A stretch of DNA of 64,000 nt from Victivallales bacterium. GTDB taxonomy: Bacteria; Verrucomicrobiota; Lentisphaeria; Oligosphaerales; Oligosphaeraceae. Position numbers and translations under genes: made by a program. How positions within the stretch are numbered: the stretch's first letter is position 1; every line of letters begins with the position of its first letter. The notes below the pieces were generated by a model that saw only the letters and a program-made list of their open reading frames with translations, had not been told where the DNA came from and made no database searches. This document shows positions 45,846 through 64,000 of the stretch, piece after piece. Location of the stretch: NCBI GenBank assembly GCA_017617415.1, contig JAFZWH010000065.1, forward strand, positions 1 through 64,000. The letters run 5' to 3'.

Positions 45846-46460
45846 ATGAAAAAAGTACCTACCGATTTAAATGAAATCCTGCAAAACGACGATCCGGTTC
45901 GTCAACTCTTCGCACGCCTTGTCGCCAATCCCCATGAGGAAATCACACCCGACGAATGGAGCCAACTCGTCGATTGCAAGGACGGCGACGAATGGCGCAA
46001 GCTCATCGCCGCCCGCCCCGAATCCGCCGAGCATTGCCCCTGGGTCGATTTTGACGTCTGCGAGTGGTGGCCCATCTTCAAATACCTTCCGCAGTATTTC
46101 GAGAAATGCCCTTGCGCCAGCGAGGTTCCTGCACGTGCCTGGGCATATCTTCTCTGCCAGCGCCCCGAGCTAGCACAGAAATTCAACGGCTGGAACGAAC
46201 TAACCGTCAAAGAATGGTCCAGCCTGATTAGACTTCAGCCAGCCCTTGCCGAATACTGTCCCTGCCTCCCGCAGGCGAAGGCACTCACCCCGCAAGATTT
46301 CGACGACGACTTCTTAACCTTCCCCACCGGTGACGACACCATTGATTTCCTTGCCGACACCGACTACCTCAGCTACTACTGCTCCTATGGTGATGTCCTC
46401 ATGGAACAACTCCAAAAGGAACTGGAAAAGGAAGCCCTGGGCACTGACAACGCGGAATGA
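45846..46460 (+). CDS. Trp/Pro/Cys repeat protein opening the TerY-P-like cluster
   Basis: This 204-residue protein has no signal or membrane segment. It is built of irregular repeats of about 25-30 residues with the pattern W-x2-L-(8)-P-x-x-A-x2-C or F-x-W, for example EEITPDEWSQLVDC, EWRKLIAARPESAEHCPW, WAYLLCQRPELAQKFNGW and EWSSLIRLQPALAEYCPC. Similar W/P/C repeats occur in proteins of unknown role from gut bacteria. The acidic C-terminus ends KEALGTDNAE. The ATG of the kinase gene overlaps its stop (ATGA at 46457-46460), so it is translationally coupled to the kinase and is probably its partner or target. Confidence 0.78.
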   Translation: MKKVPTDLNEILQNDDPVRQLFARLVANPHEEITPDEWSQLVDCKDGDEWRKLIAARPESAEHCPWVDFDVCEWWPIFKYLPQYFEKCPCASEVPARAWAYLLCQRPELAQKFNGWNELTVKEWSSLIRLQPALAEYCPCLPQAKALTPQDFDDDFLTFPTGDDTIDFLADTDYLSYYCSYGDVLMEQLQKELEKEALGTDNAE

Positions 46461-47623
46461 TTGCAGAATTGCTCAAACAGATTTTCGGCCACTTCCCGTT
46501 GCCATCCAGCAGCACGACAACGGCACCACGGCAATGCACCAGAGGCACAGCCACCTCAAACCGCCCAGGCACACACCGGAGAACCCCATCTCAGCCTGCC
46601 ACCGGCGCGGACTGGCAGAAGCTCTCTCAACCGAAAACATCACGGAATGTCTTCACCGTCTATGACCCCAGACAAACCCCGTTGCAACTCACTCCCGCAG
46701 ACGAAATCGCGCGCGGCGGCGAGGGCATAATCTACCGCATTCCCCAGTCGAGTTCGTACCTTCTGAAAGTCTGCAAGCCGGAGACAATCGCTGACCGCCA
46801 AAAACTCGCGCTCTTCCACCAGCGACTCGCTGCCATGTCCGCCATCGAAGAATGTCGAGAGGCAAAAAATCTGGCATGGCCACTGATGCCGGTAAGAGAC
46901 AGCCAGGGACGAACCATAGGTTTCGCAATGCAGAAATGTGCAGGACGTACATTTCGGGCCCTCTTCGCCCCTGTGCAGGTCCAACGTTTTTTCCCTGGCT
47001 GGAACCGTATCCAGGTCACGCAGGTCGCCCTCAACTTTCTGGATGCCATTCGGATGCTTGCCCGACACCAAGTTCTTGTCAACGACTTCAACCCTAGTAA
47101 TTTCCTCGTGGACAAGACCGGCACGGTGCGGTTTATCGACTGCGACAGTTTCCAGATTCCCATGCCTGGCAGACTGCCGTTGATGACCCGCACCTTCACC
47201 CCTGAGTTCTGCGCCCCAGAACTACTTCTCCATCCCGAAAACTTCAACCGCCCCCGCACCCCCGAGCAGGTACGATTCAGTCTCGCTGTGGTCATCTATA
47301 TGATTCTGATGAGCGGGCTGCACCCCTTTGCACGATGCGGAGGCGGAGACCCCACTGAAAACCTTAAGAGCGGCAAATGTCCGCTTGTCAAGGAAAGTGG
47401 AGTCAGGATGCCCGTCAGCTGGTACAAGTCTGTCAGCTGGCTTACGCCTTCCCTCAAAGACTGCTTCATCCGGATGTTCGTGGACGGCTTCGCACATCCG
47501 GGAAAACGCCCCCTCCTGAGTGAACTCCGTACAGAACTCGTGCACTTCCTCCAGGTAATGAAAACGAGCCGAACCGAAAACCAACGGGCAATTCTGCCCA
47601 CTACTGCAAGAAAAGGGAAATAA
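46457..47623 (+). CDS. Protein kinase-fold protein of the TerY-P triad
   Basis: This 388-residue protein has a non-conserved, Thr/Pro-rich start (1-75) followed by a protein-kinase fold. ARGGEGIIYRIPQSSSYLLKVC (about 85-106) is the Gly loop and the ATP-binding lysine. VNDFNPSNFLVDKTGTVRFIDCDSFQI (about 207-233) corresponds to the catalytic loop and metal site, with ND-FNPSN replacing HRD and DCD replacing DFG. Those variants are typical of the kinase partnered with TerY-type vWA proteins and PP2C phosphatases. The C-lobe ends near 360. The order kinase, vWA, phosphatase follows with tiny gaps. Confidence 0.85.
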   Translation: MIAELLKQIFGHFPLPSSSTTTAPRQCTRGTATSNRPGTHRRTPSQPATGADWQKLSQPKTSRNVFTVYDPRQTPLQLTPADEIARGGEGIIYRIPQSSSYLLKVCKPETIADRQKLALFHQRLAAMSAIEECREAKNLAWPLMPVRDSQGRTIGFAMQKCAGRTFRALFAPVQVQRFFPGWNRIQVTQVALNFLDAIRMLARHQVLVNDFNPSNFLVDKTGTVRFIDCDSFQIPMPGRLPLMTRTFTPEFCAPELLLHPENFNRPRTPEQVRFSLAVVIYMILMSGLHPFARCGGGDPTENLKSGKCPLVKESGVRMPVSWYKSVSWLTPSLKDCFIRMFVDGFAHPGKRPLLSELRTELVHFLQVMKTSRTENQRAILPTTARKGK

Positions 47624-47625
47624 CC

Positions 47626-48318
47626 ATGAACAACTACGCAGAAGAAAACACCCTAGATGTCACCAACCCCGCTCCCCGTTGCCCAGTCGTCCTGCTTCTT
47701 GACACCTCAGGGTCAATGAGTGGCAAACCCATCCAGGAACTCCGCGAGGGACTCCACCAGTTCCTTACGGAAACCAGCGACGACGAGACTGCCTCGATGA
47801 GCGTTGAACTCGAAATCATCACCTTCGGCGGAAGCGTGGACATTGCCACTCCATTCGCACCGGTCAGCAATGTCAGCGACGCCCCACCCACTCTGAACGC
47901 CACTGGTTCCACCCCGATGGGCGAGGCACTCAAATTTGCCGACCAGGAACTCAAGGCACGTCGGCGTCTCTACAAGAACAAAGGCATCTCTTCCTACAAG
48001 CCGTGGGTCATCCTCATGACTGACGGCGTACCCACCGACGACTGGGAAGGCCCTGCCCAATCAATGCGTGCCCTGGGCGAACAGCGCAAGCTCCAGTATA
48101 TCGGCATTGGCATCGGCGAAGAGGCAGACTTTGAAACTCTTCGCCAAGCTCTTCCGGAACACCCTGGTCCAGTGAAGCTCAAGGGACTCTGCTTCAAGGA
48201 ATTCTTCAGCTGGCTCACCGACTCCCTAAAGAGCGTTTCTGCCTCCTCTGTCGCCGAGCAGGACAATATCCGCCTCGGCAATGTGGACTCCTGGGCGGAC
48301 CTCTCCGGAACGAACTAA
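47626..48318 (+). CDS. TerY-like von Willebrand factor A protein
   Basis: This 230-residue cytoplasmic vWA protein has a complete MIDAS metal site: DTSGSMSGKPIQELREGL (about 27-44, DxSxS), the Thr in ATGSTPMGEALKFA (about 92-105) and the Asp in ILMTDGVPTDDW (about 128-140). It begins 2 bp after the kinase stop. TerY proteins work with a kinase and a PP2C phosphatase in the so-called TerY-P triad of tellurite-resistance-related stress systems. Phosphorylation of a vWA protein or of clients bound by it is the usual proposal, not shown here. Confidence 0.9.
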   Translation: MNNYAEENTLDVTNPAPRCPVVLLLDTSGSMSGKPIQELREGLHQFLTETSDDETASMSVELEIITFGGSVDIATPFAPVSNVSDAPPTLNATGSTPMGEALKFADQELKARRRLYKNKGISSYKPWVILMTDGVPTDDWEGPAQSMRALGEQRKLQYIGIGIGEEADFETLRQALPEHPGPVKLKGLCFKEFFSWLTDSLKSVSASSVAEQDNIRLGNVDSWADLSGTN

Positions 48319-48406
48319 ATCCCTGACATTTCAGAGAATCCGGATCTTCCAGGTTGCCCGGAACTTCCGGATTCTCCGATTTCCAGATTTACATTTTGCA
48401 TTTGAT

Positions 48407-49195
48407 ATGTTCGCCCACGCAGTCTCCATCCCCGGCAATGGACACATCCGCCGGGAACTCCCCTGTCAGGATGCCAGCGGAGTGTGGCTTTCACCCCGGC
48501 CATGCCTCATCGTTTGTGACGGGCGTGGCAGCGCAAGTCTCTCGCATTTGGGTGCACGCGCCGCTGTCCGCGCATTTCGTTCCCAGTGCGCGGTCATGGA
48601 GGCGCGTCTTGCCTGCATCCTCGACCGACCACACTGTGGTTCAAAGGATTGGCATCGTTTCTGTCAAATGATGATTCGCACCGTCTGTCAACAGAAGACC
48701 GAACTCGCTGAGGAACATCAATGTTCCGAACGCGAATTCGATTTCACCATCGCCTTCGCCATCCTCGGGGAACACCATATTGGTGTCTTCCAGGTCGGCG
48801 ATGGCGCCATCACTGTCCAACGTGACGGCCAATGTTCCGTCGTCTTTCCACCTGACAAAGGCGAATTCGACAACCAGACCTCGTTCCTCAAGACAGGAGA
48901 CGACAAAACTGGATTATTTCACGCAGACATCATAGAGACCAATGGCGTCACCGGAGTGGCCATTACCAGCGATGGTCCTGAACATCTGATGTTCGACCTC
49001 CAGACCATGACTCCAGGCCCCATCTTCGACCAACTCTTCGCGGATCTCTCGGGCGGCCAACTTACCCGGCAGGATATCCTCGACTACCTCACTGGCACCC
49101 GATGGACACGTGATCCGCGCGGCGCAGACGACCGGTCGCTTGCCATTCTTGCATTCCCCAGCCATGAGGAGGAGCCTCCCGATGGGCTGGTATGA
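48407..49195 (+). CDS. PP2C-type protein phosphatase of the TerY-P triad
   Basis: This 262-residue PP2C-like Ser/Thr phosphatase starts at MFAHAVSIPGNGHIRRELPC after an 88-bp gap that carries only shadow coding. Metal-binding motifs are CQDASGVWL (about 21-29), LIVCDGRGSASLSHLGARAA (about 36-55), VGDGAITV (about 136-143), ITSDGPEHLMFD (about 187-198) and the final GADDRSLAILAF (about 242). All key acidic residues appear present. Together with the kinase and vWA gene it forms the canonical triad; its role would be to reverse the kinase's action. Confidence 0.88.
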   Translation: MFAHAVSIPGNGHIRRELPCQDASGVWLSPRPCLIVCDGRGSASLSHLGARAAVRAFRSQCAVMEARLACILDRPHCGSKDWHRFCQMMIRTVCQQKTELAEEHQCSEREFDFTIAFAILGEHHIGVFQVGDGAITVQRDGQCSVVFPPDKGEFDNQTSFLKTGDDKTGLFHADIIETNGVTGVAITSDGPEHLMFDLQTMTPGPIFDQLFADLSGGQLTRQDILDYLTGTRWTRDPRGADDRSLAILAFPSHEEEPPDGLV

Positions 49196-49975: not shown

Positions 49976-50965
49976 CTATGAGTTACAGCGGGTGATTTCG
50001 CGCCCTGCCTCGGCGACTTTCTCGCGCAGTTCTTGCGGTTCCAGTACCTGGATACGACCTCCCTCGCCGAGTACCCATCGCATTACCTCGTGCTCCACTG
50101 TGGGATTCAGGGTCACGACCAGCGAACCGTCCGCCTGAGGTTCAAGTTTTGACTGGAATTTTATCTGCTGTTCATGGATGTAGAAGGCAATCGAGGCATC
50201 GCAGTGCAGTTTGATGCCCGAAACCTTTGGATAATTGAAGATGCCGTTCCGACGAGTCTCTTCCAGTAGCTTGCGGTCACTCTGGAACATCCGCAAAAGG
50301 GGAGCCACGCCCGTGATGCGTTGGCACGCAAATACACGTACCTCGCGCGTGCCCATCAAATAGCCCTTGGTGTACCAGTTTCCATTGTGGAAAACCAGGA
50401 GATGCGGCTCAAAGTCGTGTTCCGAGTTCTTCCCCTGCGGATCCTGGTACTTCAATTTCACACATTGACGCAACCGCCATGTGTCAAAAAGCGCCTGGAA
50501 GATCTCCGGCTTGATATGGGATTTCACGCCTGAGGCGGCGAGAATCGTCTCCATCATCGTGCGGTCAAAGAACTTTGATGAATTTACAGTCATCGTCTGT
50601 GTCAAGGCACGATCCATTTCGCCCTTCAGGGGTTCCGGCGCGAGTTCCTCGGCCAGCTGCACCCCCAGCATCGTCATGCTCACAAACTCGTCGTCAAAGA
50701 TTGGCGTGGCAAAGGACCACGAGTGGTTCGTCAGCACGTATGTCCGCTCGGACTCGTCATATTCGATAGGGGCATTGAGCGCTTGCTGAAGATGCTGGAT
50801 GTCGCGCGCCACTGTGCGCGCACTGCACCCCAACGGTGCTCCCGGCTCATGCTCGTGAGCGCGGAAATACTCGGCGAGGCTCTGGGTGTTGACTTGCTTG
50901 TTGCATTTAAGCTCCGAGACAATCTTGGCCAGCCGGAGATTCTGTTGAGATTTGGTGTATGGCAT
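49976..50965 (-). CDS. WYL-domain transcriptional regulator
   Basis: This 329-residue protein has an N-terminal winged helix-turn-helix (residues 10-75, ending SARTVARDIQHLQQALN) and a WYL-type ligand-sensing domain (about 150-320; LKYQDPQGKNSEHDFEPHLLVFHNGNWYTKGYL is characteristic, as is the VRVFACQRITGV strand). WYL regulators often repress defence systems and may sense nucleic acids or nucleotides. It is divergent from the GTPase operon at 51332, across an intergenic region in which it may bind. Confidence 0.88.
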   Translation of the reverse strand: MPYTKSQQNLRLAKIVSELKCNKQVNTQSLAEYFRAHEHEPGAPLGCSARTVARDIQHLQQALNAPIEYDESERTYVLTNHSWSFATPIFDDEFVSMTMLGVQLAEELAPEPLKGEMDRALTQTMTVNSSKFFDRTMMETILAASGVKSHIKPEIFQALFDTWRLRQCVKLKYQDPQGKNSEHDFEPHLLVFHNGNWYTKGYLMGTREVRVFACQRITGVAPLLRMFQSDRKLLEETRRNGIFNYPKVSGIKLHCDASIAFYIHEQQIKFQSKLEPQADGSLVVTLNPTVEHEVMRWVLGEGGRIQVLEPQELREKVAEAGREITRCNS

Positions 50966-51331: not shown

Positions 51332-51712
51332 ATGACCATCCCCACATCCGACCCAATCTACCACGAGATGCTCCTAGACATCAACTTCCGGCTTCGCCTT
51401 GTGGACGACCTTCTGGGTCCTGCCACCGACAGCCTCGTGGACGCCCTGACCCTGGAGGAGTTCGACGCCAAACGCCGAACCCTCGAACAACTCCACGCCT
51501 ATGCGCAAGCCCTGCAGCTCATCTACACCGACTTCCGTCATCTCATCGACGACTCCCAAGTGACCTTCCCTTCCGAACCCGTGCTTTGGCAATGGAACGA
51601 GCTCAATGGCGACGAAACGATCGCCACCACTCTTGAACGGCTCCAGGCCATTGCCGAAGGCCTTGGAGAGAAAGTAAACGCGGCCTTGGGGCACAAGGAG
51701 GCATCCGCATGA
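51332..51712 (+). CDS. Helical protein coupled to the island GTPase
   Basis: This 126-residue acidic, Leu-rich helical protein (LLDINFRLRLVDDLLGPATD, EFDAKRRTLEQLHAYAQALQ) has no signal, metal motif or recognised fold. Its stop overlaps the GTPase start (ATGA at 51709-51712). An adaptor or regulator of that GTPase is the simplest guess. Confidence 0.75.
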   Translation: MTIPTSDPIYHEMLLDINFRLRLVDDLLGPATDSLVDALTLEEFDAKRRTLEQLHAYAQALQLIYTDFRHLIDDSQVTFPSEPVLWQWNELNGDETIATTLERLQAIAEGLGEKVNAALGHKEASA

Positions 51713-53187
51713 ACCATCTCCGCTTCGGTGCTCTATTGATGATGAGAGGACGCCGCCTGGGTATCTACCTCTCGCACCGCGTAGTCCTCACCATCCCCAA
51801 ACCCGGTCCAATCCGGGCGGCGGCACTCAAGGACTTCCAGCCTGCGCAGGTTTTCGCCTGCCAAGGCATCGCCGTGCCCTTTTTCGAGGCGCTGGTCACC
51901 GCCACCACCACCCAGAAGCACTTCGCCAGTTCTCTTGAGATGGTCAAACACCTCCTCAGTCTTCCAGAGGAATTTTACCTCAACGATTTAATTGCATACC
52001 TGAAACGCCGCTACGGCGCAGAACTCGAGGAGTTCTCCATCCCCGTCCCCCAAAACCACCCAACTCCAAGCGAAAAGGAAACTATGGACACCAACGAGAT
52101 CATCGATGAATTCAACGCAAAGTACAACGAGGCCCGCACACAATACACTGGCAAACGCCCGAACATCCTGGTCTGTGGCTATACTGGCAGCGGCAAGTCC
52201 TCGCTGGCTAAAGCCATCCTTGGCGACGTGGTACCAGACCACGCCATCGGCGACGGACGCCCCCAGACCATGGGCTATGACTGCTACGAAAATGAACTAA
52301 TACGCATCTGGGACTCTCGCGGACTCGAAAACGGCCAGGCCGAAGAGGAGTTCACCGCCCAGACCCGCCAGTTTGTCCGCGAACGCCAGAGCGACCCAAA
52401 TGTGGACAACCATATCCACCTGGTTTGGTACACCATCCAGGGCTCCGGCGCACGCGTGACCGACTGCGACCTCAACCTCATCCGGAACATCTTCAACCCC
52501 GAACACGTCATCGTCGTGATCACCAAGGCTGACATCACTCGGTCCACTCAGCAGGAAACCATGCGAAACATCCTTCTGGAGGCCGGAGTGCCCGCCGAAC
52601 ACATCCTCTTTACCTCCGATGCCGACAGCGGTGCCACCGGCTGCCAGGCCCTCATGGAACTCTCGCACCGAATGCTCCCCGAAGCCTACCGCGATGCCTT
52701 CCTGGAGGCACAGCGCATCGACTTGGAGGCTCGCCGCCAGGCGATTCTGGCCAAACGTGGCAAGGCGAAGGCTATAGTCGCCACCGCAGTCACCGCTGCC
52801 GCCGGTGCGGGCGCCATCCCGATTCCACTCTCTGACGCTGCCGTCCTCATACCCATCCAAATCACGATGATCGCCAGTCTGGCCGGTCTCTACGGATTGC
52901 GCAAAGAGGCCGTCAAGCAGTCTGCCCTGCCCTTTGTGGCCAAGCTCGTAGGCGTCTTCGCCTCCTCCAGCCTCCTCAAACTCATACCCGGTCTGGGCAG
53001 CGCAGTGAACGCGGCAGTCGCCGCTACCCTCACTGGCGCGATGGGACGATTCGTTCGTGGCAATTTTGAAGAGACCGCACTGGCCAAACTCGAAGGACGC
53101 CCCACGCCAAATTTAGTTTTCGACGTGGAACTCTTCAAAAAGTTCTACTTGGAATACCAGCAAAGACAAAACCAAGACAAGGAGTAA
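51709..53187 (+). CDS. P-loop GTPase with C-terminal membrane-hairpin (DUF697-like) region
   Basis: This 492-residue protein has an N-terminal non-conserved domain (1-140) and a GTPase domain: G1 ILVCGYTGSGKSSLAKAI (about 150-167), G3-like IRIWDSRGLENG (about 198-209) and G4 VVITKADITR (about 263-272). A helical linker leads to hydrophobic segments (AGAGAIPIPLSDAAVLIPIQITMIASLAGLYG and ALPFVAKLVGVFASSSLLKLIPGLGSAVNAAVAATLTGA) that resemble DUF697/YcjF-type membrane-associated tails. An IRG-like or Era-like relative acting at the membrane is plausible. Two small partners are in the same operon. Confidence 0.85.
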   Translation: MNHLRFGALLMMRGRRLGIYLSHRVVLTIPKPGPIRAAALKDFQPAQVFACQGIAVPFFEALVTATTTQKHFASSLEMVKHLLSLPEEFYLNDLIAYLKRRYGAELEEFSIPVPQNHPTPSEKETMDTNEIIDEFNAKYNEARTQYTGKRPNILVCGYTGSGKSSLAKAILGDVVPDHAIGDGRPQTMGYDCYENELIRIWDSRGLENGQAEEEFTAQTRQFVRERQSDPNVDNHIHLVWYTIQGSGARVTDCDLNLIRNIFNPEHVIVVITKADITRSTQQETMRNILLEAGVPAEHILFTSDADSGATGCQALMELSHRMLPEAYRDAFLEAQRIDLEARRQAILAKRGKAKAIVATAVTAAAGAGAIPIPLSDAAVLIPIQITMIASLAGLYGLRKEAVKQSALPFVAKLVGVFASSSLLKLIPGLGSAVNAAVAATLTGAMGRFVRGNFEETALAKLEGRPTPNLVFDVELFKKFYLEYQQRQNQDKE

Positions 53188-53192
53188 CTGTT

Positions 53193-53552
53193 ATGAACGA
53201 CAAGATGGAAGAACTCAGGAAGTTGATCGAAACTCTCGAAGAAGATTCGCCACTGCGTGCCCAGCTTGAGGATGCATTGAAGGCAGAGGAATCGCGCCTC
53301 GAAGAACAAAGCAAGCAGACTGCCCAGCAGGAGGACGCCCAGCCGCAGGACAATGCGGAATCCACCGACAATGCGGAATCCGCCGAGAACGACGAATCGC
53401 ACCGACAAGTCGCCGACACCCTCGATGAACTCATCGACAAAATTGACGAGTTGATGAAAAACGACGAGTTCGTTTCTGGAGTGGCTGGCTTCATTCTCGG
53501 CGCCGCCACCGTCGGCTTGGGCGCACTCGCCATCCACGCCTGCAAAGATTGA
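53193..53552 (+). CDS. Small acidic coiled-coil protein with C-terminal hydrophobic segment
   Basis: This 119-residue protein is strongly acidic with a heptad start (MEELRKLIETLEEDSPLRAQ), a Gln/Asp/Asn/Ala-rich linker (QQEDAQPQDNAESTDNAESA), a second helix (LDELIDKIDELMKND) and a C-terminal Gly/Ala-rich hydrophobic segment (FVSGVAGFILGAATVGLGAL) that could insert in a membrane. AAGGAG precedes it. It lies 5 bp after the GTPase gene and is probably its partner or lid. Confidence 0.75.
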   Translation: MNDKMEELRKLIETLEEDSPLRAQLEDALKAEESRLEEQSKQTAQQEDAQPQDNAESTDNAESAENDESHRQVADTLDELIDKIDELMKNDEFVSGVAGFILGAATVGLGALAIHACKD

Positions 53553-53723: not shown

Positions 53724-54308
53724 ATGGCCTACACCACCCGACAATCAATGTTAAACGGCATGCGCCAGAACCAGGAAACTGCCTGGGAGGACTTCCGTAC
53801 CACCTACGCACCATTGATACGGCTGATTGCCCGGAAGAAAAATCTGACCGACCAGGAGACCGACGAACTTCTGCAAGATGTCTGCGTGACGATGGTCCAG
53901 CGGGATGCCATTGGCAAATACAACCCCGCGCAGGGGTGCTTCCGAACCTATCTGGGACGCATTATCAACAACTGCGCCGTCGATATCATCCGCAAACGTC
54001 CGGCGGCGCAATCGGTTTCCACACGGCATTTCAACAACGCTACCGACGCAGAGTCCGAAGTCGTGGAGGAGCTAACCCACGAATGGGAGGAGTTCCTCCT
54101 GGAGAAGGCACTGGCCGAAGTGCGGTCGCGATGCGACGACCTTACTTTCCTCGCCTTTGATTTCCATGTCCGCCAGCAGCGTCCGGCCAAGGAGGTCGCA
54201 GAGGCATTGGGCATTTCGGAGCAGAAAGTCTATCTCTCCAGCAGCCGCATCACTCAGCGACTGAAGGAGACTGTCGAACGCCTGCAAAAGGAGCTGGAGA
54301 AGCCGTGA
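53724..54308 (+). CDS. ECF-type sigma-70 factor
   Basis: This 194-residue RNA polymerase sigma factor has region 2 at about residues 20-90 (AWEDFRTTYAPLIRLIARKK, LLQDVCVTMVQRD, CFRTYLGRIINNCAVDIIRK) and region 4 at about 135-185 (LAFDFHVRQQRPAKEVAEAL, then GISEQKVYLSSSRITQRLKE). It has no anti-sigma domain. Its stop overlaps the start of the transmembrane kinase (GTGA at 54305-54308), so the pair is translationally coupled. Kinase-linked ECF factors are known to be activated by Ser/Thr phosphorylation, which is the likely mechanism here. Confidence 0.9.
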   Translation: MAYTTRQSMLNGMRQNQETAWEDFRTTYAPLIRLIARKKNLTDQETDELLQDVCVTMVQRDAIGKYNPAQGCFRTYLGRIINNCAVDIIRKRPAAQSVSTRHFNNATDAESEVVEELTHEWEEFLLEKALAEVRSRCDDLTFLAFDFHVRQQRPAKEVAEALGISEQKVYLSSSRITQRLKETVERLQKELEKP

Positions 54309-57085
54309 GGCCGCAGCCGGGGACATCTTTCGCGGGCTATGAAATCCTCGCCGAATGTGGCAAAGGCGCCTACGGGACGGTCTTCCTGGGCACCGATGCC
54401 CTCGGGCACCGCGTCGCCATCAAATATATGACCACCACCGAGGCCGGCGACTATGAAATGAAGGGCCTACGCAACTACATGGCGCTGGCCAATCGCCCGC
54501 CTGCACTCCTCCAAATCCATCACTGCGGTTTCGACGACGGACGGCTTTTCTATGTGATGGAGGCCGCCGACAACGCCGCCGACCTCCCCGGCAAGTACCT
54601 CCCCGACACCCTCGCCGAACGTCTCCGCAGATCCGCAAGAATCCCAGCCGCCGATGCACTCGCATTGGGCCATGCGCTTCTGGACGGACTTGAAGTCCTC
54701 CACAATGCGGGAATGCTCCACCGAGACATCAAGCCCGAGAACATCATCTTCGTGAATGGCGTGCCAAAACTCGCCGACCCGGGACTCACACGGGCCTTCA
54801 ACGAGACCATATCCATTGCAGGAACTCCCGGATATCTCGCGCCAGAACTCCTGAATGGTGCCAAAGCGTCGCCCGCCACCGACCTCTATGCGTTGGGAAA
54901 GGTCCTCTATCGCGCCGTGACAGGAAACTCTCCAGAACGCTATCCCGAACAGCCCACCGATGTCCCCATCGATGAACTCTACCAGGCCTGCCGTCCACTG
55001 ATGCGGCTGTGCAATTCCAATCCCGCACTACGATGCCAGACTTGCGCCGAGGCACGCCGCGCCATCCCACGGAAACTCCAAAAACATGGTGCCATCCGTA
55101 GGCTCCGCGACCGGCTGGTCCTCAACCCCGCTTTTCGGCGACATGCCTTCATTTGTACCATCCAAGTGCTGGCGGTTTTGATTCTCCTATTGACAATGCA
55201 CGCCGCAAGGAGAAATCGCCGCGCTGCGGAAAAACGCTGCGAGACCTCCGCACAACATCTTATGAATAAAGCAAATGAGATGCAACGCGAAAGGCTCCTT
55301 CACCAACTGGAAATGCTGGAACAAGAAGCCCCTGCGCTCGACCGACAATTGAAGATGCTGGACGAAGAACCAGTTCAGCCAAAATTGGACACTATAAGAC
55401 AACTCCTGACAGAAACTGACAATCCAACTGCGGGACATTTGCTCCATCAATGCCATCAAACTCTCGCGAAAATGTCCCTTAAGCATCTTCCAGTCTCCGA
55501 TGACAATATCCCGCCTGACTTCCAAAGCGCCGGCCAAGGCTGGGGCTATCTTGCCTCTCCGTTAGGCAGATTCCTACCACCTACGCAACGCCAACGCCTT
55601 GAAGAACATCTGAAACGCTTCTCGCTTGCATTCGTTGAATCCGATTCGCCACATCTGGGCAAGACCTTCAGCGATCTTAAACTCAAGGGCTTCGAGATGG
55701 CATTCATCCCGCCAGGCAGTTTCCATTCGCCCACCACAGGTTCCACACAAACCATCGAATACCCCTATTGGATGACCACCACCGAGGTCAGTGGTGAACT
55801 CTACCAGTACCTTACGCAGCAGCCGCTCCTGCGAACTTCGTCTGCGCAGGGTGCCGAATACCTCACCTGGAATGACATGCTCCTCTTCTGCCGGACTATT
55901 CAAGATCGCCTTGCTAAAGATCACCAACTTCCACCTGGCTACGCCATTCGACCGCCAACCGAGGCCGAATGGGAGTTCGTGGCCTTGGACGGGTGGTCCT
56001 CCACGCCACCGACCTCTCGCGAAATCCCCTCACACGAGTCTACGCCGACTACTGGCTCCGGTTCGCCCAATTCATTCGGTATCTATAACTTGGATGACAA
56101 TCTGGCCGAAGTGGCCATGCCCTACTCCGAAGTCCTGCCCAAATACGCAGGGGCTTTCGTTGCTCGCGGTGCTGACTACCGTTGTGACACCACGTCGGTT
56201 GCAAATCGCTTTGACTACCTCCCCGACCAGGGACACCGCTGGGGTGTCGGCCTCCGCCCTGTCCTCGCCCCCACACCGCCAGACTACTACACAACCCACT
56301 GGTATCGAGGTCCTGAAATTCGCATGGTTGCCATCGATGGCGCCATCTACGCGGGTTTCACCACCATCCAGGCAGTCCTTTCCTGGCAGAACGCTTGCCA
56401 ACTCGCCCTGGATTGCGGTGCGACCCTTCCTGGCATCGACGATCTCCCAAAGCTCCCGGAAATTTACCACGCCCTCGGCCTCGTCACGGACTACCCATGC
56501 CACCTTGCCATCCAATATCAGGACAATGCCTGGCGCGACCTCGAAAACGATGTCCGTTGTGAGGACCCACGGCTCAAGCCAGCCACCAGCCAACGTAACT
56601 GCCTCGACGCCTCCGCCAGCGGCCTGACTCCCATCGCTGCAACTATGGTCGCCCCCGTCGTCTTGCTGAAGTGGAATTCTCAAGATGCTTATGAACAACG
56701 TGGCAGGACCTTCCTGCAAAATGCGGCCATCAGCTGCTTTGAACTCGATGGACACCGCCTTGCCGTCTGCCGCGCTTCACTCCCCACCTACGCCATCCGG
56801 TCGTTCGCACAGTTCCTTGGAGTGAAACAGCCTACGCTTAACTACTCCACAGAGAACATCCGACAACTTCTTGCGCATTTCCCTGACGAGACAGCCTGCG
56901 CCCTCGGCCCCATTCCCTTCTATCACCATTGGGAACAGCCCGACGGCTCGTTTCTCGAGTTCCAAGCCCCGAAACCAGAATATACCCTGCTGACCTACCA
57001 CGCACGCATCCTCTGCGTTCTGGCCGCAAAGAACGGCCGTTTCGTCCAGACCGGTGATGTCTCCACTTTCCTCGTGGAATTGTGA
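54305..57085 (+). CDS. Transmembrane Ser/Thr kinase with formylglycine-generating-enzyme-like domains
   Basis: This 926-residue protein begins at GTG. An N-terminal Hanks-type kinase (residues 1-265) has GKGAYGTVFLGTDALGHRVAIKYM, LHRDIKPENIIFV near 139 and ADPGLTR, in which DFG has become DPG. A membrane helix follows (about 280-300), then a coiled coil (about 310-375). From about 460 comes an FGE/SUMF1-like domain (FEMAFIPPGSFH, YWMTTTEVSGELYQYL, RPPTEAEWEFVALDGW), and a second degenerate copy from about 670 (IRMVAIDGAIYAGFTTIQ). The external part probably senses a signal; the kinase then acts on the coupled sigma factor. FGE activity is unlikely to be the point. Confidence 0.87.
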   Translation: MRPQPGTSFAGYEILAECGKGAYGTVFLGTDALGHRVAIKYMTTTEAGDYEMKGLRNYMALANRPPALLQIHHCGFDDGRLFYVMEAADNAADLPGKYLPDTLAERLRRSARIPAADALALGHALLDGLEVLHNAGMLHRDIKPENIIFVNGVPKLADPGLTRAFNETISIAGTPGYLAPELLNGAKASPATDLYALGKVLYRAVTGNSPERYPEQPTDVPIDELYQACRPLMRLCNSNPALRCQTCAEARRAIPRKLQKHGAIRRLRDRLVLNPAFRRHAFICTIQVLAVLILLLTMHAARRNRRAAEKRCETSAQHLMNKANEMQRERLLHQLEMLEQEAPALDRQLKMLDEEPVQPKLDTIRQLLTETDNPTAGHLLHQCHQTLAKMSLKHLPVSDDNIPPDFQSAGQGWGYLASPLGRFLPPTQRQRLEEHLKRFSLAFVESDSPHLGKTFSDLKLKGFEMAFIPPGSFHSPTTGSTQTIEYPYWMTTTEVSGELYQYLTQQPLLRTSSAQGAEYLTWNDMLLFCRTIQDRLAKDHQLPPGYAIRPPTEAEWEFVALDGWSSTPPTSREIPSHESTPTTGSGSPNSFGIYNLDDNLAEVAMPYSEVLPKYAGAFVARGADYRCDTTSVANRFDYLPDQGHRWGVGLRPVLAPTPPDYYTTHWYRGPEIRMVAIDGAIYAGFTTIQAVLSWQNACQLALDCGATLPGIDDLPKLPEIYHALGLVTDYPCHLAIQYQDNAWRDLENDVRCEDPRLKPATSQRNCLDASASGLTPIAATMVAPVVLLKWNSQDAYEQRGRTFLQNAAISCFELDGHRLAVCRASLPTYAIRSFAQFLGVKQPTLNYSTENIRQLLAHFPDETACALGPIPFYHHWEQPDGSFLEFQAPKPEYTLLTYHARILCVLAAKNGRFVQTGDVSTFLVEL

Positions 57086-57597: not shown

Positions 57598-57810
57598 ATG
57601 TTTAAGTTTCACGAACTGGACCGCAAGGTCTGCCTGACTTGCCAATACTTCAAGGGCAAGCGCAAACTCGAATTCATCGGACGACAGCTCTTCATCGACT
57701 ACGAGAAGACCACTGGCGCCTGTAGGCTCTACCGCGACTTCCCCGTCATCATCAACGCCCCCGGCGATCGCTGCAGCTGGTGCCACTACAAACGCTGGGT
57801 AGAACTGTAA
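57598..57810 (+). CDS. Small Cys-rich (zinc-ribbon-like) protein
   Basis: This 70-residue protein starts at MFKFHELDRKVCLTCQYFKG. CLTCQYF (about 11-17), a Cys near 43 (GACRLY) and CSWCHYKRW (about 60-68) give a C-x2-C...C...C-x2-C set able to bind zinc. Upstream in-frame starts read AT-rich non-coding sequence. It is the first gene of the AT-richer module. Function unknown. Confidence 0.65.
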   Translation: MFKFHELDRKVCLTCQYFKGKRKLEFIGRQLFIDYEKTTGACRLYRDFPVIINAPGDRCSWCHYKRWVEL

Positions 57811-58567: not shown

Positions 58568-59158
58568 ATGGAAAATAATTGTTCAGAAAAAACGTCCGAA
58601 CATACAAGCAATGCTGATTTGTGCGAGGATGCGCTTGACCGAAAACTAGAAAATCAATTGGAAGAACAAAGATCCTTGATTGACCGGATTGGTGACGTGT
58701 TTGCCAAGATGGTTAAAGGCATCTTTATTTTTGCCTTTTGGAAATTACCGAGCAAGCTCTGGGATCTTATCACTGATCTTGAGAAACTTAAGAAAGTGCT
58801 GAAATGGTTGAAAAGCATATTTCGCACGATTTTCTATATACTGCTTTGGATTGTAATCGTCTTTTTAGGGTGGTGGCTTTTCCTCAAAGAGAAGTTCATT
58901 CGTTTTTGGTTGGCAGTGCGTGACCTTCTCCAGCAGTTCTTCTTTCATACCTTGGAGTTTCTTAAAGCTAATGCAGGGTGGATATGGATGATTATTGCGC
59001 TAATGGGGTCTGCATACGGCTTGGCCTATGTAACTTTAAAGCACCATGCGAAGAAAAAGGGTAAGGAATTCAGAGGAGTTTTTGGTTGGCTACGTAGGAA
59101 AAAGAAAGATACATCTACGAATGAAATAAACATGAACAATAAAGAAAATCCATCATGA
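58568..59158 (+). CDS. Membrane protein with amphipathic lysine-rich tail
   Basis: This 196-residue protein has an acidic start (1-45), then hydrophobic or amphipathic segments: about 47-68 (VFAKMVKGIFIFAFWKLPSK), 90-112 (IFYILLWIVIVFLGWWLFL), 120-135 and 140-160 (GWIWMIIALMGSAYGLAYVTL). The C-terminal tail is Lys-rich (HHAKKKGKEFRG, RRKKKDTS). AAGGAG precedes the ATG. I recognise no family. It overlaps the next small gene by 4 bp. Confidence 0.75.
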   Translation: MENNCSEKTSEHTSNADLCEDALDRKLENQLEEQRSLIDRIGDVFAKMVKGIFIFAFWKLPSKLWDLITDLEKLKKVLKWLKSIFRTIFYILLWIVIVFLGWWLFLKEKFIRFWLAVRDLLQQFFFHTLEFLKANAGWIWMIIALMGSAYGLAYVTLKHHAKKKGKEFRGVFGWLRRKKKDTSTNEINMNNKENPS

Positions 59159-59336: not shown

Positions 59337-59993
59337 ATGGGCTGGGGTAAGACATTAGCCGCTGGTATCGGCGGTTTTTTAATTGGCGGACCGCTTGGGG
59401 CAGCGGCAGCAGCAAGTGCAGTCGCTGCGTATGACAAGCACAAGGAAAATGAAGAGATACGAGAGTCAACAAACCGCGAAGCTGGTCGGAAAGAAGATTC
59501 ACATAAACAAATTAAGGAGTCGCATGATCGGCGTTTAAAAGCCCAAAAAGAACGTGAAGAAGCCGAAAAGAGCGAATTTTCCGCTTTGGAACAACAACAA
59601 AAGGATGACGCAAGGCGTGCATCAGAACGCGTTGCACAAGCTGCACTACAGCGTGACCAACTTATGATTGCCTGTTTGGCTGTAGGCATGGCGGCCGGAA
59701 CCGTTGACGGTGATCTTTCCGCAGATGAATCGGGAGAACTCCATGATTTGCTGAATAGTTTACGTGGCGACGAGGAATTTTCTCAAACTGTTCAAGCCAA
59801 GATAGAAGAATACGAGAAAAACCCACCAACTTTCATGAAAGCCAAAAAAGAAGTTGACAAAGTGCAAAATGCCGATTTGAGATTTTTCAGAAAACTGATT
59901 GTCTGCATTATACGCAGTGACAACGAGACTTCGCTTGAAGAGGTAGATTTTCTAGAAAAATGGGATCATTTTTATCCTGAAACTTGCAAATAA
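59337..59993 (+). CDS. Glycine-zipper/coiled-coil protein with C-terminal TerB-like domain
   Basis: This 218-residue protein has an N-terminal glycine-rich hydrophobic stretch (GWGKTLAAGIGGFLIGGPLG, AAAAASAVAAY), a charged Lys/Glu coiled coil (about 35-105), and a helical domain (about 110-215) resembling TerB/DjlA: QLMIACLAVGMAAGTVDGDLSADESGELHDLL contains the typical acidic cluster with DGDLSADE. TerB domains are associated with tellurite-resistance-type stress systems and membranes. This links the AT-rich module with the TerY-P cluster at 46-49 kb. The call rests on pattern alone. Confidence 0.7.
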   Translation: MGWGKTLAAGIGGFLIGGPLGAAAAASAVAAYDKHKENEEIRESTNREAGRKEDSHKQIKESHDRRLKAQKEREEAEKSEFSALEQQQKDDARRASERVAQAALQRDQLMIACLAVGMAAGTVDGDLSADESGELHDLLNSLRGDEEFSQTVQAKIEEYEKNPPTFMKAKKEVDKVQNADLRFFRKLIVCIIRSDNETSLEEVDFLEKWDHFYPETCK

Positions 59994-60017: not shown

Positions 60018-61712
60018 ATGCAATTAAAAGAGTTAATTACGCAATTGGCCGATAAATACGGGTACGATAACATTAGCCAGCGTTTGATCGCGTTGGCTAA
60101 TGCACCAACAATTCGCATTGGCTTCATAGGTGAATTTAGTGCTGGAAAGTCCAGTTTGATTAATTCCATCTTAGACATCCATTTGCCTACTAACATTGCT
60201 CCGACAACCAAGGCGATTTGCTTGATAGAACCTACTGTCGGTCTGGAAAGCAATCGTTACTTCAAAGAACGTGGAAATGTTCGCGAAACTACTGACTTTA
60301 CTGATTTTCGCAATATTCTTCGTGGCGAAAGTGACTACCAGGCAGCAGTAGTTCAAGTACCTCCATGTGAGGTGTTGCCTTCCGGTTGCATTTTTGTTGA
60401 CACTCCCGGTATTCACACGGCGACAGGCAGCGAAGCAGAACTGACAAAGGCTTACTTAAGCATGTTAGATGCGGCAGTTGTTTGCATTAACATTACAAAT
60501 GGTGTTATCAACAAGGATTTGTTGGATTTTCTATGTGATGCACAACTTTCACATCTACAACGTCATCTCGTTTTTGCCCTGACCTGGAGTGATCGCAAGT
60601 CTCCTGAAGAAGGCGAGATTGTCCGCAAGCATATTGTCCAACTCTTACAAAAAACTGTACAGGAAGGGCGGATGGACATGGATAACTTAGATGCTAAAGT
60701 TTTCACCATATCTGCACTAGAACAAGGCAATGCCGAGAAACTTTATAAGGTGCTGAAACACGCTGTTTTGGAAGACTTACCTGCTTTGCATGAGCAGCGT
60801 AAACAGCAAATGCTGAAGGGAATTGGCAAAGAACTGTTGGCAATGTTGCAAGAACGACTCAAAGTTTCGCAGTTTAACGATTCCGAGTTGGATAGCGAAC
60901 TGGAAAATACTCAAAAAGAAATTAAGGGGTTGCAAATTGAATTGCGCAAGCGCGAGGGGCAAATGGATACCTTACAGGAGAATGTGACCCAGAAAGTGCA
61001 GAACATTTTGTCCAATCATTTGTTCGGCATAGGAGCGGCAAGTTCTCCCGCAGAGCGAGTGCCCTTACTCGAAACAATGAATCAAGAAATAACACAAACC
61101 TTGCAAGCCGAAGCAAAGACTTACCTAGGAATAAATAACTTTAGTTCTGCTGGCATTGGAAACATCGGCCAAGAAATTGAGACGAAGATGCAATCCATTG
61201 AAGCGTTCCGCAATATGAGTGTAACAATTTCAACTGCAATAGCGACGGCTTGGTTAATTCCGGGTGGTGCAGTAGTGGGTAATCTTGCCCAAGCGGCAGG
61301 CGGTGCTGCTGTCCAAGGGGCTGCAAGCGCGGTATCCGGCGGGGCTACTGGTTCTACAGGCAAGCAGCAACAGACAGGTGCATTCGGGGCATTACTTGGT
61401 GGAATTGGGTCTGCCTTCAAAGCCATTAACCCATTTGAGCACATTGGGAATTTAGTTGCCATGAATGCCAAGAAGAATGCCTTGGAAAATATGGTAACCG
61501 AAAAAGCGGCTACAATTACCAATACATTCCTTTTGTCTTTGGAGACTCCATTCCAGAGTGAGGTTCTGCAGCCTTTGCAAGAACAGTTGGAAGAAAAACG
61601 TCGTCAACTTTCAAGCCTCCATGATAAAGGGCTTCAAGCAATCGAGGAGTTCCGTAAGCAGAAGTCACAAACAGAGCAAGAAGCAAAACAACTACAAGAA
61701 TTGCTGGTTTAA
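60018..61712 (+). CDS. Dynamin-family GTPase 1
   Basis: This 564-residue bacterial dynamin-like GTPase has G1 IGFIGEFSAGKSSLINSIL (about 35-53), a switch I Thr in NIAPTTKAICLIEP, G3 CIFVDTPGIHT (about 126-136) and G4 ALTWSDRKSP (about 187-196). A helical stalk (about 260-330 coiled coil) is followed by a Gly/Ala-rich hydrophobic segment (about 400-455, TAWLIPGGAVVGNLAQAAGGAAVQGAASAV) that could insert into a membrane, then a final coiled coil. It is the first of two adjacent dynamin-like genes, which in bacteria often work as heteromers. Confidence 0.9.
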   Translation: MQLKELITQLADKYGYDNISQRLIALANAPTIRIGFIGEFSAGKSSLINSILDIHLPTNIAPTTKAICLIEPTVGLESNRYFKERGNVRETTDFTDFRNILRGESDYQAAVVQVPPCEVLPSGCIFVDTPGIHTATGSEAELTKAYLSMLDAAVVCINITNGVINKDLLDFLCDAQLSHLQRHLVFALTWSDRKSPEEGEIVRKHIVQLLQKTVQEGRMDMDNLDAKVFTISALEQGNAEKLYKVLKHAVLEDLPALHEQRKQQMLKGIGKELLAMLQERLKVSQFNDSELDSELENTQKEIKGLQIELRKREGQMDTLQENVTQKVQNILSNHLFGIGAASSPAERVPLLETMNQEITQTLQAEAKTYLGINNFSSAGIGNIGQEIETKMQSIEAFRNMSVTISTAIATAWLIPGGAVVGNLAQAAGGAAVQGAASAVSGGATGSTGKQQQTGAFGALLGGIGSAFKAINPFEHIGNLVAMNAKKNALENMVTEKAATITNTFLLSLETPFQSEVLQPLQEQLEEKRRQLSSLHDKGLQAIEEFRKQKSQTEQEAKQLQELLV

Positions 61713-61733
61713 GCTTTCAACATTAATTCCCTT

Positions 61734-61774
61734 GCACTCTGCCATAAGATTATCATGGTTTTATGGGAGAGTGC
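61734..61774 (+). promoter_or_regulatory. Long hairpin between the two dynamin genes
   Basis: GCACTCTGCCATAA (61734-61747) pairs with TTATGGGAGAGTGC (61761-61774), 13 of 14 positions matching, with a 13-nt loop. It occupies half of the 82-bp gap between the dynamin genes. No T run follows directly, so it may be an internal stem setting the expression ratio of the two genes rather than a terminator. Confidence 0.5.
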
Positions 61775-61794
61775 ATAATCCCCTTTATAGAATT

Positions 61795-64000
61795 ATGACT
61801 ACTTCCAAGCTAAGTCCTTCTCTTGTCAAGTGCATCGATGGAATTCTAGACCAATATAAGGATTTATTGGGGGCGGATTTTATTCGCCGGACACGCAAGG
61901 GAATGGAACCATTCCTGCAACAAGAAAATACTGGGGGCTTGCGGGCTACTGATGAGTCCAATTTAAAGGTTGCTGTAGTTGGCGCGTTTAGTTGTGGCAA
62001 ATCAACTTTTATCAATTCCATTTTGGGAGATACAGTTGCGCCAGTGGAAATCACCCCGAAGACTCACGGTGTTACCAGTTTTATCTATGGTGAAAAAGAA
62101 ACCTATGATGCTGACGGAGTGAACATTAATCGGGAGAAATATCAGGAACAAGTTCAAGACGGCAATAATCAAGTTAAACACTTTATTGTCCATTATCCAT
62201 GCGAACGTCTCAAGTCATTAGAATTCATGGACTCTCCTGGTTTTGGTTCAGTTAGCGGCAAAGCTGAAGAAGTCGCGAAGAAAGATACTGCCCTTAGCGA
62301 AGAGGCCGTCAATCGTGCTGATGTGGTATTTTTCCTCACGAACATAACCGAAGGTGTGATACAAGGTGATGCCTTGGAACGTCTTGAAGGAATTTGCAAT
62401 CAGAAAGAAGGAATGGTGAATCCCCACCGCCGGATTTATGTCATTTTGACATGGGCTGATAAAAAAGCACCAACAGAACGCTTAAATGTTCAGCAGAGCA
62501 TTCAAAAACTATGTTCCGAACATAAATTGCCAATTGAGAGCGTATTGCTATATTCTTCTTTGTCATTAGAGAAATTCAAGTCTTCGCAGCAGCGTGAGTT
62601 CTTTGCTTCTGCGCGAGAAAACTTATTCCGCATTCTATTAGATTTGCAATCCTTCCGTGTGGAGTTGATGGCTTATCGCCAAGCGTTGCAGTCCAAATCG
62701 GAACAATTGAAGATACAGCATTTTTTGAACAATTTCCAGACGGGGTGTCGTCAAATCATGGCGACCCAAAAAGAAATTCAGACCCATGAAATTCAGCGAA
62801 ATAATCTAAGAAATTGGACTGGGTTCCGTGAAGAGGCTGCTGATTGCATTTATAAGGTTCTAATGGAAAAATTTGATGACAAACGATATTTAATGGGACA
62901 TGCCGAAGAAATGAAAGTATTTTCAGACAGCCGTGTAGAACTTTATTGTCATGAAGATGTAGTATCATTGACCGAAGAGGAGTTGTCATCGATTACAGAT
63001 AGTATAGTTGATATTGGCAAAAAGTATAATTATAAAATCACTACAACAGGCAATTCGCCATTTACGATTTTTTTCAGCAAAAAAACTGAGAAGAAAGAAT
63101 TACCATTATCTGGCAATGAAGAACCGTATAATCATCTTATGGATTATATGTTTACTCCTGACGGTGTAGAAGTATTTCCCACTGGTTCCTTACGAGACTT
63201 ATATCTAAGATTATGCGTCGAGATGATTCTTTCGGTTGGCGGCCCATGGATGTATGAAGGGGCTAAACCAGATGAATTTCTATATGAAAAACTGGATGAA
63301 CTTAAAGTCCTGCTTGATACTGAGGCTAAAGATGGTTTTGCTGGAATTATCGATAGCGAAATGAAGAGTGCCTTGACCAATGGTTTTTTGCAAAAATCCC
63401 TAGAACAGATGGAAAAGCAATTTACCTCTTTGAGTAAGGCATTAGATAAGATTAAAATCGAATCTGTTGATGATACTTTGGAGGACATGTCCTTAGAAGA
63501 ATTGGCTGCCAGCATTGGTGCAGAAATTACATGCCCAACGGCAGATGATTCATCAGCAAAAGACCAAGAAGTGGTAGATGATGGTTCGTTGCATGATGTG
63601 ATTGTCAACAAAGTTGGGCCGAGATCTCTGTGGGTTGCCAAGATAATTAATATGTTAAATAGGGAAAATTTGGAAGATATTTTAGAAGGCTTGGAGGCCC
63701 CCCCATTGACGTGTTTACAAAAAGTATCATTGCCGGAAGCTGTGCGGGCAAAAAGTGCTTTGGAAAAGGTAGGGTCAGATGTTACTTTAAAGCAAGTCAA
63801 GGCAGCAAGTCGCTCTGCTTTGTCTGATACGAAGAAATCACCTGCACAAAAAGACTCCACCGATGATAGAAAACCTAGTGAAGTCTCTGAAGCAGCATAT
63901 AACAGGGTGGTTGACGCTCATAGCGTTTTGGTTTCTGCTTTGGCAAATAATGCTCAGCAAAAAGCTGGTATATCACCCAAGATAAGTATATCAGAACAAA
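61795..64000 (+). CDS. Dynamin-family GTPase 2 (runs off the window end)
   Basis: A reading frame opens at ATG 61795 (MTTSKLSPSLVKCIDGILDQ) and continues without a stop to base 64000 (735 codons seen). The GTPase domain has G1 VAVVGAFSCGKSTFINSILG (about 62-81), a switch I Thr in VEITPKTHGVTSFIYG, G3 EFMDSPGFGSVSG (about 143-155) and G4 VILTWADKKAPTE (about 218-230, close to TWSD in the first dynamin). Long helical regions follow, and the last 150 residues seen are Ser/Lys/Asp-rich linker sequence. It is larger than the first dynamin and may carry a further C-terminal domain beyond the window. The pairing suggests a two-component membrane-remodelling GTPase. Confidence 0.88.
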   Translation, partial: MTTSKLSPSLVKCIDGILDQYKDLLGADFIRRTRKGMEPFLQQENTGGLRATDESNLKVAVVGAFSCGKSTFINSILGDTVAPVEITPKTHGVTSFIYGEKETYDADGVNINREKYQEQVQDGNNQVKHFIVHYPCERLKSLEFMDSPGFGSVSGKAEEVAKKDTALSEEAVNRADVVFFLTNITEGVIQGDALERLEGICNQKEGMVNPHRRIYVILTWADKKAPTERLNVQQSIQKLCSEHKLPIESVLLYSSLSLEKFKSSQQREFFASARENLFRILLDLQSFRVELMAYRQALQSKSEQLKIQHFLNNFQTGCRQIMATQKEIQTHEIQRNNLRNWTGFREEAADCIYKVLMEKFDDKRYLMGHAEEMKVFSDSRVELYCHEDVVSLTEEELSSITDSIVDIGKKYNYKITTTGNSPFTIFFSKKTEKKELPLSGNEEPYNHLMDYMFTPDGVEVFPTGSLRDLYLRLCVEMILSVGGPWMYEGAKPDEFLYEKLDELKVLLDTEAKDGFAGIIDSEMKSALTNGFLQKSLEQMEKQFTSLSKALDKIKIESVDDTLEDMSLEELAASIGAEITCPTADDSSAKDQEVVDDGSLHDVIVNKVGPRSLWVAKIINMLNRENLEDILEGLEAPPLTCLQKVSLPEAVRAKSALEKVGSDVTLKQVKAASRSALSDTKKSPAQKDSTDDRKPSEVSEAAYNRVVDAHSVLVSALANNAQQKAGISPKISISEQ

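What the first reader, a model, noticed from the sequence alone, without database searches (positions are those of the whole stretch)
60018..64000. Two adjacent, unlike dynamin-like GTPases in an AT-rich insertion
Both have intact G1, G3 and G4 motifs but differ in length and tail: the first has a Gly/Ala hydrophobic segment, the second a long linker region. A 13-of-14-bp hairpin lies between them. Bacterial dynamin pairs can form heteromers that remodel membranes, and some bacterial dynamins protect against phage. Base composition unlike that of the first 57 kb suggests recent transfer.
Basis: partly seen in the sequence, partly recalled or inferred. Interest (0 to 1): 0.65.

Follow-up and report, generated by a model that had tools for sequence, protein, structure and literature searches.

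The report
Three dynamins with ribosome-stalk arms
The two dynamin-like genes are the first two of three in one operon of a ruminant-gut bacterium, and the second and third carry repeated copies of a domain normally found on the ribosome's stalk protein; this combination was found in only one other searched genome and points to a membrane-acting, probably protective machine whose parts dock through these arms.

Summary
Two dynamin-family GTPases lie at 60018-61712 and 61795-65469, and a third (DynC, 65472 to the contig end) follows directly. The 'long linker' of the second protein is mostly four bL12 C-terminal-domain repeats followed by a probable PH-like domain; DynC begins with two more repeats. 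Pfam scores for the repeats are 82 and 68 bits against a cut-off of 26. L12-bearing dynamins were found in only two genomes, this one and a sister species (Victivallales, goat abomasum). Elsewhere in 198 genomes of the class, listed L12 matches are ordinary bL12-sized frames, except one poly-L12 protein. All twelve repeats have lost most of the basic translation-factor site (K65, R73, K84), so they look like L12-fold docking arms, not ribosome mimics. L12-free triple-dynamin cassettes occur on plasmids and in other Lentisphaeria, one with a patatin phospholipase fused. The operon sits beside a conserved kinase/vWA/PP2C/WYL/GTPase/sigma/kinase cluster. AT-rich composition is real here (GC3 0.34-0.42) but absent in the sister (0.63-0.68), where the operon lies elsewhere in the same cluster. 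Most likely: a regulated heteromeric membrane-remodelling, defence-type machine. G4 in the first two proteins is TWxD, not canonical.

The parts
60018..61712 (+). DynA, 564 aa dynamin-like GTPase with Gly/Ala-rich hydrophobic stretch (candidate membrane paddle)
   Evidence: Dynamin_N 65.4 bits; G1 res 38, DTPG res 128, TWSD res 189; hydrophobic peak res 402
61733..61775 (+). intergenic hairpin between DynA and DynB, 19 bp, no U-run
   Evidence: fold -25.7 kcal/mol, z -4.55; not seen in sister gap; no Rfam family
61795..64000 (+). DynB, 1224 aa, runs on to contig position 65469: G domain, stalk, four L12-CTD repeats, linker, PH-like/BnzA-N C-terminus
   Evidence: ATG at 61795 aligns with the sister start
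63577..63792 (+). first L12-CTD repeat of DynB (the other three at contig 64015-64230, 64252-64464, 64483-64695; DynC repeats at 65472-65684 and 65694-65903, all beyond the window)
   Evidence: Pfam PF00542, four stretches, 82.3 bits; own profile
59337..59993 (+). gene T, 218 aa, glycine-zipper N-terminus, directly upstream of DynA; conserved in the sister (70%)
   Evidence: no Pfam family over cut-off
57600..57810 (+). 70-aa Cys-rich protein (two CxxC), head of the operon in the sister; homologue upstream of a two-dynamin fusion in G016 (L108)
   Evidence: tblastn 81% to L013 8101-8322 and 34% to L108
58057..58311 (+). 84-aa ORF, not found in the sister operon
58568..59158 (+). 196-aa ORF with hydrophobic segments, not found in the sister operon
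54305..57085 (+). Ser/Thr kinase with weak FGE-like C-terminal match
   Evidence: Pfam Pkinase 106 bits; FGE-sulfatase below cut-off; 76% to sister
53724..54308 (+). sigma-70 family (region 2) factor, 194 aa
   Evidence: Pfam Sigma70_r2 36.6 bits; 79% to sister
53193..53552 (+). 119-aa protein with C-terminal hydrophobic stretch, adjacent to the GTPase
   Evidence: 53% to sister
51709..53187 (+). GTPase with weak EcsC/DUF697-like C-terminus
   Evidence: 75% to sister
49976..50965 (-). WYL-domain regulator; homologue also beside the triple-dynamin operon L087 (40%)
46457..49195 (+). kinase (46457), vWA (47626), PP2C (48281) triad
   Evidence: Pfam hits; 70-85% to sister, same order

Best explanation
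This is an accessory module of three dynamin-family GTPases (DynA, DynB, DynC) with two small partners (Cys-rich protein, gene T), placed beside and probably controlled by a kinase/vWA/PP2C/WYL/sigma signalling cluster. Shown: three G domains in a row, six L12-CTD-fold repeats in DynB and DynC, a BnzA-N-like C-terminus on DynB, conserved synteny in a sister species. Inferred: the three GTPases form one heteromeric complex; DynA contacts the membrane by its Gly/Ala stretch and DynB by its PH-like end; the L12-type repeats, on flexible linkers, are multivalent docking arms that bring DynB and DynC together or hold a client, and not translation-factor binders; when the signalling cluster reports phage or envelope damage, the complex assembles on the membrane and remodels, seals or breaks it.
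For: Three Dynamin_N hits in one operon. L12 repeats four plus two, also in the sister. Factor-binding positions replaced in all 12 repeats: K65 to hydrophobic or small residues, I69 to A/G, R73 to non-basic, K84 to L/M, K81 to E in 11; only K70 stays basic, against a published basic site in helices 4-5 (PMC6753160). G domains 88-93% identical between sisters, while L12 repeats are 33-50% and the C-terminal domain 39%, as for partner- or trigger-facing parts. C-terminal model with seven strands plus a C-terminal helix has PH domains as best PDB neighbours, weakly. Related triple-dynamin cassettes on three plasmids and in L087, where the first dynamin carries a patatin phospholipase and the last gene the BnzA-N domain. 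Kinase-dynamin fusion behind a sigma-like gene in L107 and kinase-BnzA-N fusion in G126 tie the signalling genes to the same domains. Patchy occurrence: 18 of 99 relatives have strong Dynamin_N matches at all.
Against: No functional data. The defence role rests on neighbours, mobility and patchiness. PADLOC matches are partial and weak except the BnzA N-terminus. The PH assignment is low confidence (pLDDT 68, best E 0.086). The DynA model failed (pLDDT 52), so no complex was modelled. The L12 version is known from two genomes only, and fast divergence could also mean relaxed constraint.
Confidence: 0.5

Rival explanations
1. Envelope maintenance or vesicle release, as proposed for LeoABC: the triple remodels membranes as part of normal physiology or stress, with no role against phages or plasmids.
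For: Bacterial dynamin pairs act on membranes (PMC6104087) and leoA/leoB loss lowers vesicle release (PMC4159319); sigma factor and kinase neighbours fit envelope stress control.
Against: Very patchy distribution, plasmid carriage and the patatin fusion fit an accessory or conflict role better.
Confidence: 0.25
2. The L12 repeats recruit translational GTPases or displace the ribosome stalk, so the dynamins couple membrane damage to translation shut-down.
For: The domain is the bL12 CTD, whose known job is binding GTPases (PMC6753160); repeats score well over the Pfam cut-off.
Against: The basic site in helices 4-5 is lost in all 12 repeats apart from K70; net charge there is -2 to +1 against +2 in the host bL12.
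Confidence: 0.08
3. The L12 repeats bind and stimulate the dynamin G domains themselves, a copy of the stalk principle with a changed surface.
For: In these genomes the remade repeats occur only on GTPases of this operon, and the changed residues are uniform across 12 repeats, as for one common new partner.
Against: No structure or binding data; L12-free triple cassettes exist without such arms.
Confidence: 0.14
4. The AT-rich stretch at the contig end is a mis-assembly or contaminant and the linkage to the upstream cluster is false.
For: Metagenome-assembled genome, abrupt GC change, short tandem repeats near 57278-57378, contig ends inside DynC.
Against: The sister assembly holds the same operon inside the same cluster, with the Cys-rich gene, T, A, B and C in the same order.
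Confidence: 0.03

Closest known systems
Bacterial dynamin-like pairs (Cj-DLP1/2, BDLP1, IniA/IniC, B. subtilis DynA)
   Same: Dynamin_N G domains, neighbouring genes, candidate membrane paddle; Cj-DLP2 docks onto DLP1 through an N-terminal helix on a flexible linker (PMC6104087)
   Different: Three full-length GTPases; TWxD G4 in two of them; L12-CTD repeats and a PH-like end, not reported for these
LeoABC
   Same: Tandem dynamin genes; weak PADLOC LeoA/LeoBC matches
   Different: In LeoABC, C and B are halves of one split dynamin (PMC4159319); here all three have complete G domains. NCBIfam LeoA/HP0731 score 14-22 bits against a cut-off of 325
L12-free triple-dynamin cassettes (plasmids NC_014749, NZ_CP148279, NZ_CP071327; L087; G047)
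   Same: Three dynamins in close sequence, one large DynC relative in each
   Different: No L12 repeats; dynamins A and B too diverged to pair off safely
bL12 ribosomal stalk protein
   Same: C-terminal domain fold, 19-36% identical to the sister's host bL12
   Different: No whole bL12, factor site mostly lost, repeats fused to dynamins
Bunzi (BnzA)
   Same: N-terminal roughly 95 residues of BnzA match the DynB C-terminus, 44.8 bits
   Different: The rest of BnzA was not matched; BnzB was not looked for separately
L12/ClpS insertions in vWA proteins of beta-propeller MoxR-vWA conflict systems (PMC7159879)
   Same: L12 domain inserted into a conflict-type protein
   Different: There in vWA proteins of Bacteroidetes; here in dynamins

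Membership tests
dynamin superfamily (bacterial DLP) | Dynamin_N profile above curated cut-off | tested here: met
   65.4, 58.1, 66.1 bits against 27
dynamin superfamily (bacterial DLP) | G1 P-loop and G3 DxxG | tested here: met
   all three proteins, both genomes
dynamin superfamily (bacterial DLP) | G4 [N/T]KxD | tested here: inconclusive
   canonical NKID in DynC; TWSD in DynA and TWAD in DynB (K replaced by W)
dynamin superfamily (bacterial DLP) | helical stalk with membrane-binding tip | tested here: inconclusive
   DynA model helical after residue 236 but mean pLDDT 52; hydrophobic stretch present
dynamin superfamily (bacterial DLP) | GTP-dependent membrane remodelling | not testable with these tools
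   needs biochemistry
LeoABC | one dynamin split into LeoC and LeoB next to LeoA | tested here: not met
   three complete G domains; definition from PMC4159319
LeoABC | NCBIfam LeoA/HP0731 family cut-off (325 bits) | tested here: not met
   14.3 and 21.9 bits for DynA and DynB
bL12 (ribosomal stalk) | CTD profile above cut-off | tested here: met
   82.3 and 68.3 bits against 25.9
bL12 (ribosomal stalk) | whole-protein L12 equivalog cut-off (84.4 bits) | tested here: not met
   64.1 and 56.8 bits
bL12 (ribosomal stalk) | basic factor-binding residues in helices 4-5 | tested here: not met
   lost in 12 of 12 repeats apart from K70
Bunzi | full BnzA | tested here: not met
   only profile positions 10-104 of 544 matched
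Bunzi | BnzB partner | not tested
   no BnzB hit among the five operon proteins scanned; other neighbours not scanned
TerY-P-like triad (own knowledge) | adjacent vWA, PP2C and kinase genes | tested here: met
   window 46457-49195, conserved in sister; specific TerY orthology not tested
PH domain (DynB C-terminus) | seven-strand barrel closed by C-terminal helix | tested here: inconclusive
   model topology fits, PDB hits are PH domains but E >= 0.086

The most novel reading that the evidence does not exclude
Dynamins have recruited the ribosome-stalk principle: arrays of L12-type domains on flexible arms gather and stimulate GTPases, here the dynamins themselves, giving a three-GTPase membrane machine built on a stalk-like scaffold, a mode of dynamin assembly I found no description of in the papers searched.
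Probability: 0.2. Interest if true: 0.8.

Novelty: new variant of a known kind. Interest (0 to 1): 0.55.

Why it matters
bL12 CTD is known for drawing GTPases to the ribosome. Finding six copies of its fold built into GTPases of an unrelated, membrane-acting family offers a direct test of whether the stalk principle (multivalent flexible capture of GTPases) has been reused elsewhere. Separately, triple-dynamin cassettes on plasmids of E. coli, Photobacterium and Calditerrivibrio gave only weak, partial PADLOC matches where scanned and can be assayed in laboratory strains.

Tried and rejected
Simple pair of dynamins: rejected, third gene found. Ribosome or translation mimicry by the L12 repeats: disfavoured, factor site mostly lost. 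Plain recent AT-rich insertion: incomplete, sister has it at host-like GC in the same cluster. LeoABC or Bunzi membership: not met. Gene T as TerB: resemblance by eye only; Pfam TerB did not match it and my profile of the L087 TerB-like proteins did not find it. Phage origin: no match for DynC in phage records, nor for A, B or C in viral contigs. Rfam: nothing but a sub-threshold hit on the tandem repeat. Promoter and terminator scans no better than shuffles. DynA structure failed at pLDDT 52, so no fold search was made with it. Literature searches for dynamin with L12 found none, but the library holds open-licence papers only. A genome search with DynB failed once on the server and was repeated with the alignment.
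Full report
What is there. The window is the first 64 kb of a 67.6-kb contig (G000:C147) of a draft genome in 176 contigs, 91% complete. A member of the same genus, G003, corresponds to a Victivallales bacterium from goat abomasum, so the host belongs to that group of Lentisphaeria. DynA is at 60018-61712, DynB at 61795-65469 and DynC from 65472 to the contig end (719 aa, cut; 871 aa in the sister). All three match Dynamin_N well over cut-off. G1 and G3 are intact in all; G4 is TWSD in DynA and TWAD in DynB, in both species, and canonical NKID in DynC.

The arms. Pfam places four Ribosomal_L12 (bL12 C-terminal domain) stretches in DynB (82.3 bits) and two in DynC (68.3 bits), cut-off 25.9; the sister has the same four and two. 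Several repeat positions are each other's best match between the species (DynB-1, DynB-2, DynC-1), so the array predates their split. In bL12 the C-terminal domain binds IF2, EF-Tu, EF-G and RF3 through a conserved basic site in helices 4 and 5 (PMC6753160). Residue numbers below are E. coli bL12 positions assigned by alignment to the sister's bL12 (numbering from own knowledge). In all 12 dynamin repeats K65 is hydrophobic or small, I69 is A or G, R73 is not basic and K84 is L or M; K70 stays K or R; net charge of helices 4-5 is -2 to +1 against +2 in the host bL12. The fold is kept, the factor surface is remade, in a uniform way.

How rare. With a profile of these repeats, the listed matches in 198 genomes of the class lie in frames of 168 codons or fewer, the size of bL12, apart from the dynamins of G000 and G003 and one protein of nine L12 repeats in G028. 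Genome searches with DynC or DynB over about 290-340 genomes of the phylum found no other such protein. L12-domain insertions have been reported in vWA proteins of Bacteroidetes conflict systems (PMC7159879); I found no report in dynamins, within an open-licence library.

The end of DynB. Its last 130 residues match the N-terminus of PADLOC BnzA (44.8 bits). A model of the sister's domain (pLDDT 68) has seven strands and a C-terminal helix, and its nearest solved structures are PH domains, weakly (E 0.086). In the sister a two-cluster 4Fe-4S ferredoxin domain sits between the L12 array and this end; the window's protein lacks it.

Relatives. Triple-dynamin cassettes without L12 occur in L087 (Lentisphaeria, roe deer cecum), in G047 and on plasmids of Calditerrivibrio, E. 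coli and Photobacterium; each has one large protein clearly closest to DynC. In L087 the first dynamin is fused to a patatin phospholipase, genes with a TerB domain or TerB-like sequence are interleaved, and the last gene carries the BnzA-N-like domain. The E. coli cassette is in 5 of 5,426 complete genomes, always on plasmids. In G048 (L107) a sigma-like gene (by inspection) precedes a Ser/Thr kinase-dynamin fusion and two more GTPases. In G126 a kinase-like region is fused to the BnzA-N-like domain. No relative of DynC was found in phage records, nor of any of the three in viral contigs.

Neighbourhood and transfer. Upstream lies a cluster kept in order in the sister: 228-aa protein, kinase, vWA, PP2C, WYL regulator, GTPase, small protein, sigma factor, kinase. 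Here the dynamin operon follows the last kinase; in the sister it sits between the small protein and the sigma factor, on the other strand. The operon is AT-rich here (GC3 about 0.34-0.42) and at host level in the sister (0.63-0.68). The Cys-rich gene at its head lies in host-like sequence here. Either the operon moved or it entered the same cluster twice; recent arrival of the AT-rich version in this genome is likely, but the link to the cluster is not an accident of this genome.

Mechanism. Shown: parts list, synteny, L12 surface change, uneven conservation (G domains 88-93%, L12 repeats 33-50%, C-terminal domain 39%). Inferred: one heteromeric GTPase complex; DynA inserting its Gly/Ala stretch, DynB binding membrane or a partner by the PH-like end; L12 arms as multivalent docking between DynB and DynC or to a client; control by the kinase/phosphatase/sigma cluster; function in protection against phage, plasmid or envelope damage. 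The docking idea follows the known Campylobacter pair, in which a flexible N-terminal element of one dynamin plugs into the other (PMC6104087).

Verdict. An ordinary dynamin pair it is not: it is a triple with L12-type arms, a new variant of bacterial dynamin operons. Function is unproven.

Noticed in passing
L079:3877-6135 (G028:C67, - strand): A 752-aa protein made of nine bL12 CTD repeats, several of canonical type, near vWA, HerA-like ATPase, Hsp70-like and WYL genes in the same family of bacteria.
   Followed up: partly
L087:680-4342: Patatin-like phospholipase fused to a dynamin, first gene of a triple-dynamin operon with TerB-like genes (roe deer cecum Lentisphaeria).
   Followed up: partly
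L107:1427-4159: Ser/Thr protein kinase-like region fused to a dynamin, behind a sigma-like gene and followed by two more GTPases.
   Followed up: partly
L013:11049-14741 (residues about 1026-1094): Two-cluster 4Fe-4S ferredoxin domain inserted in the sister's DynB between L12 repeats and the PH-like end; absent from the window's protein.
   Followed up: no
L163:3210-9983 (NZ_CP071327.1:22391-29164): Triple-dynamin cassette between TraU and TraN genes of a Photobacterium plasmid's conjugation region.
   Followed up: no
L139:9522-16235 (G003:C32): 2,237-aa protein of very many Sel1-like repeats with a BnzA-N-like domain near its N-terminus.
   Followed up: no
57278-57378: Short 9-bp tandem repeats (TGTCCCAAC) just before the AT-rich stretch begins.
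   Followed up: partly
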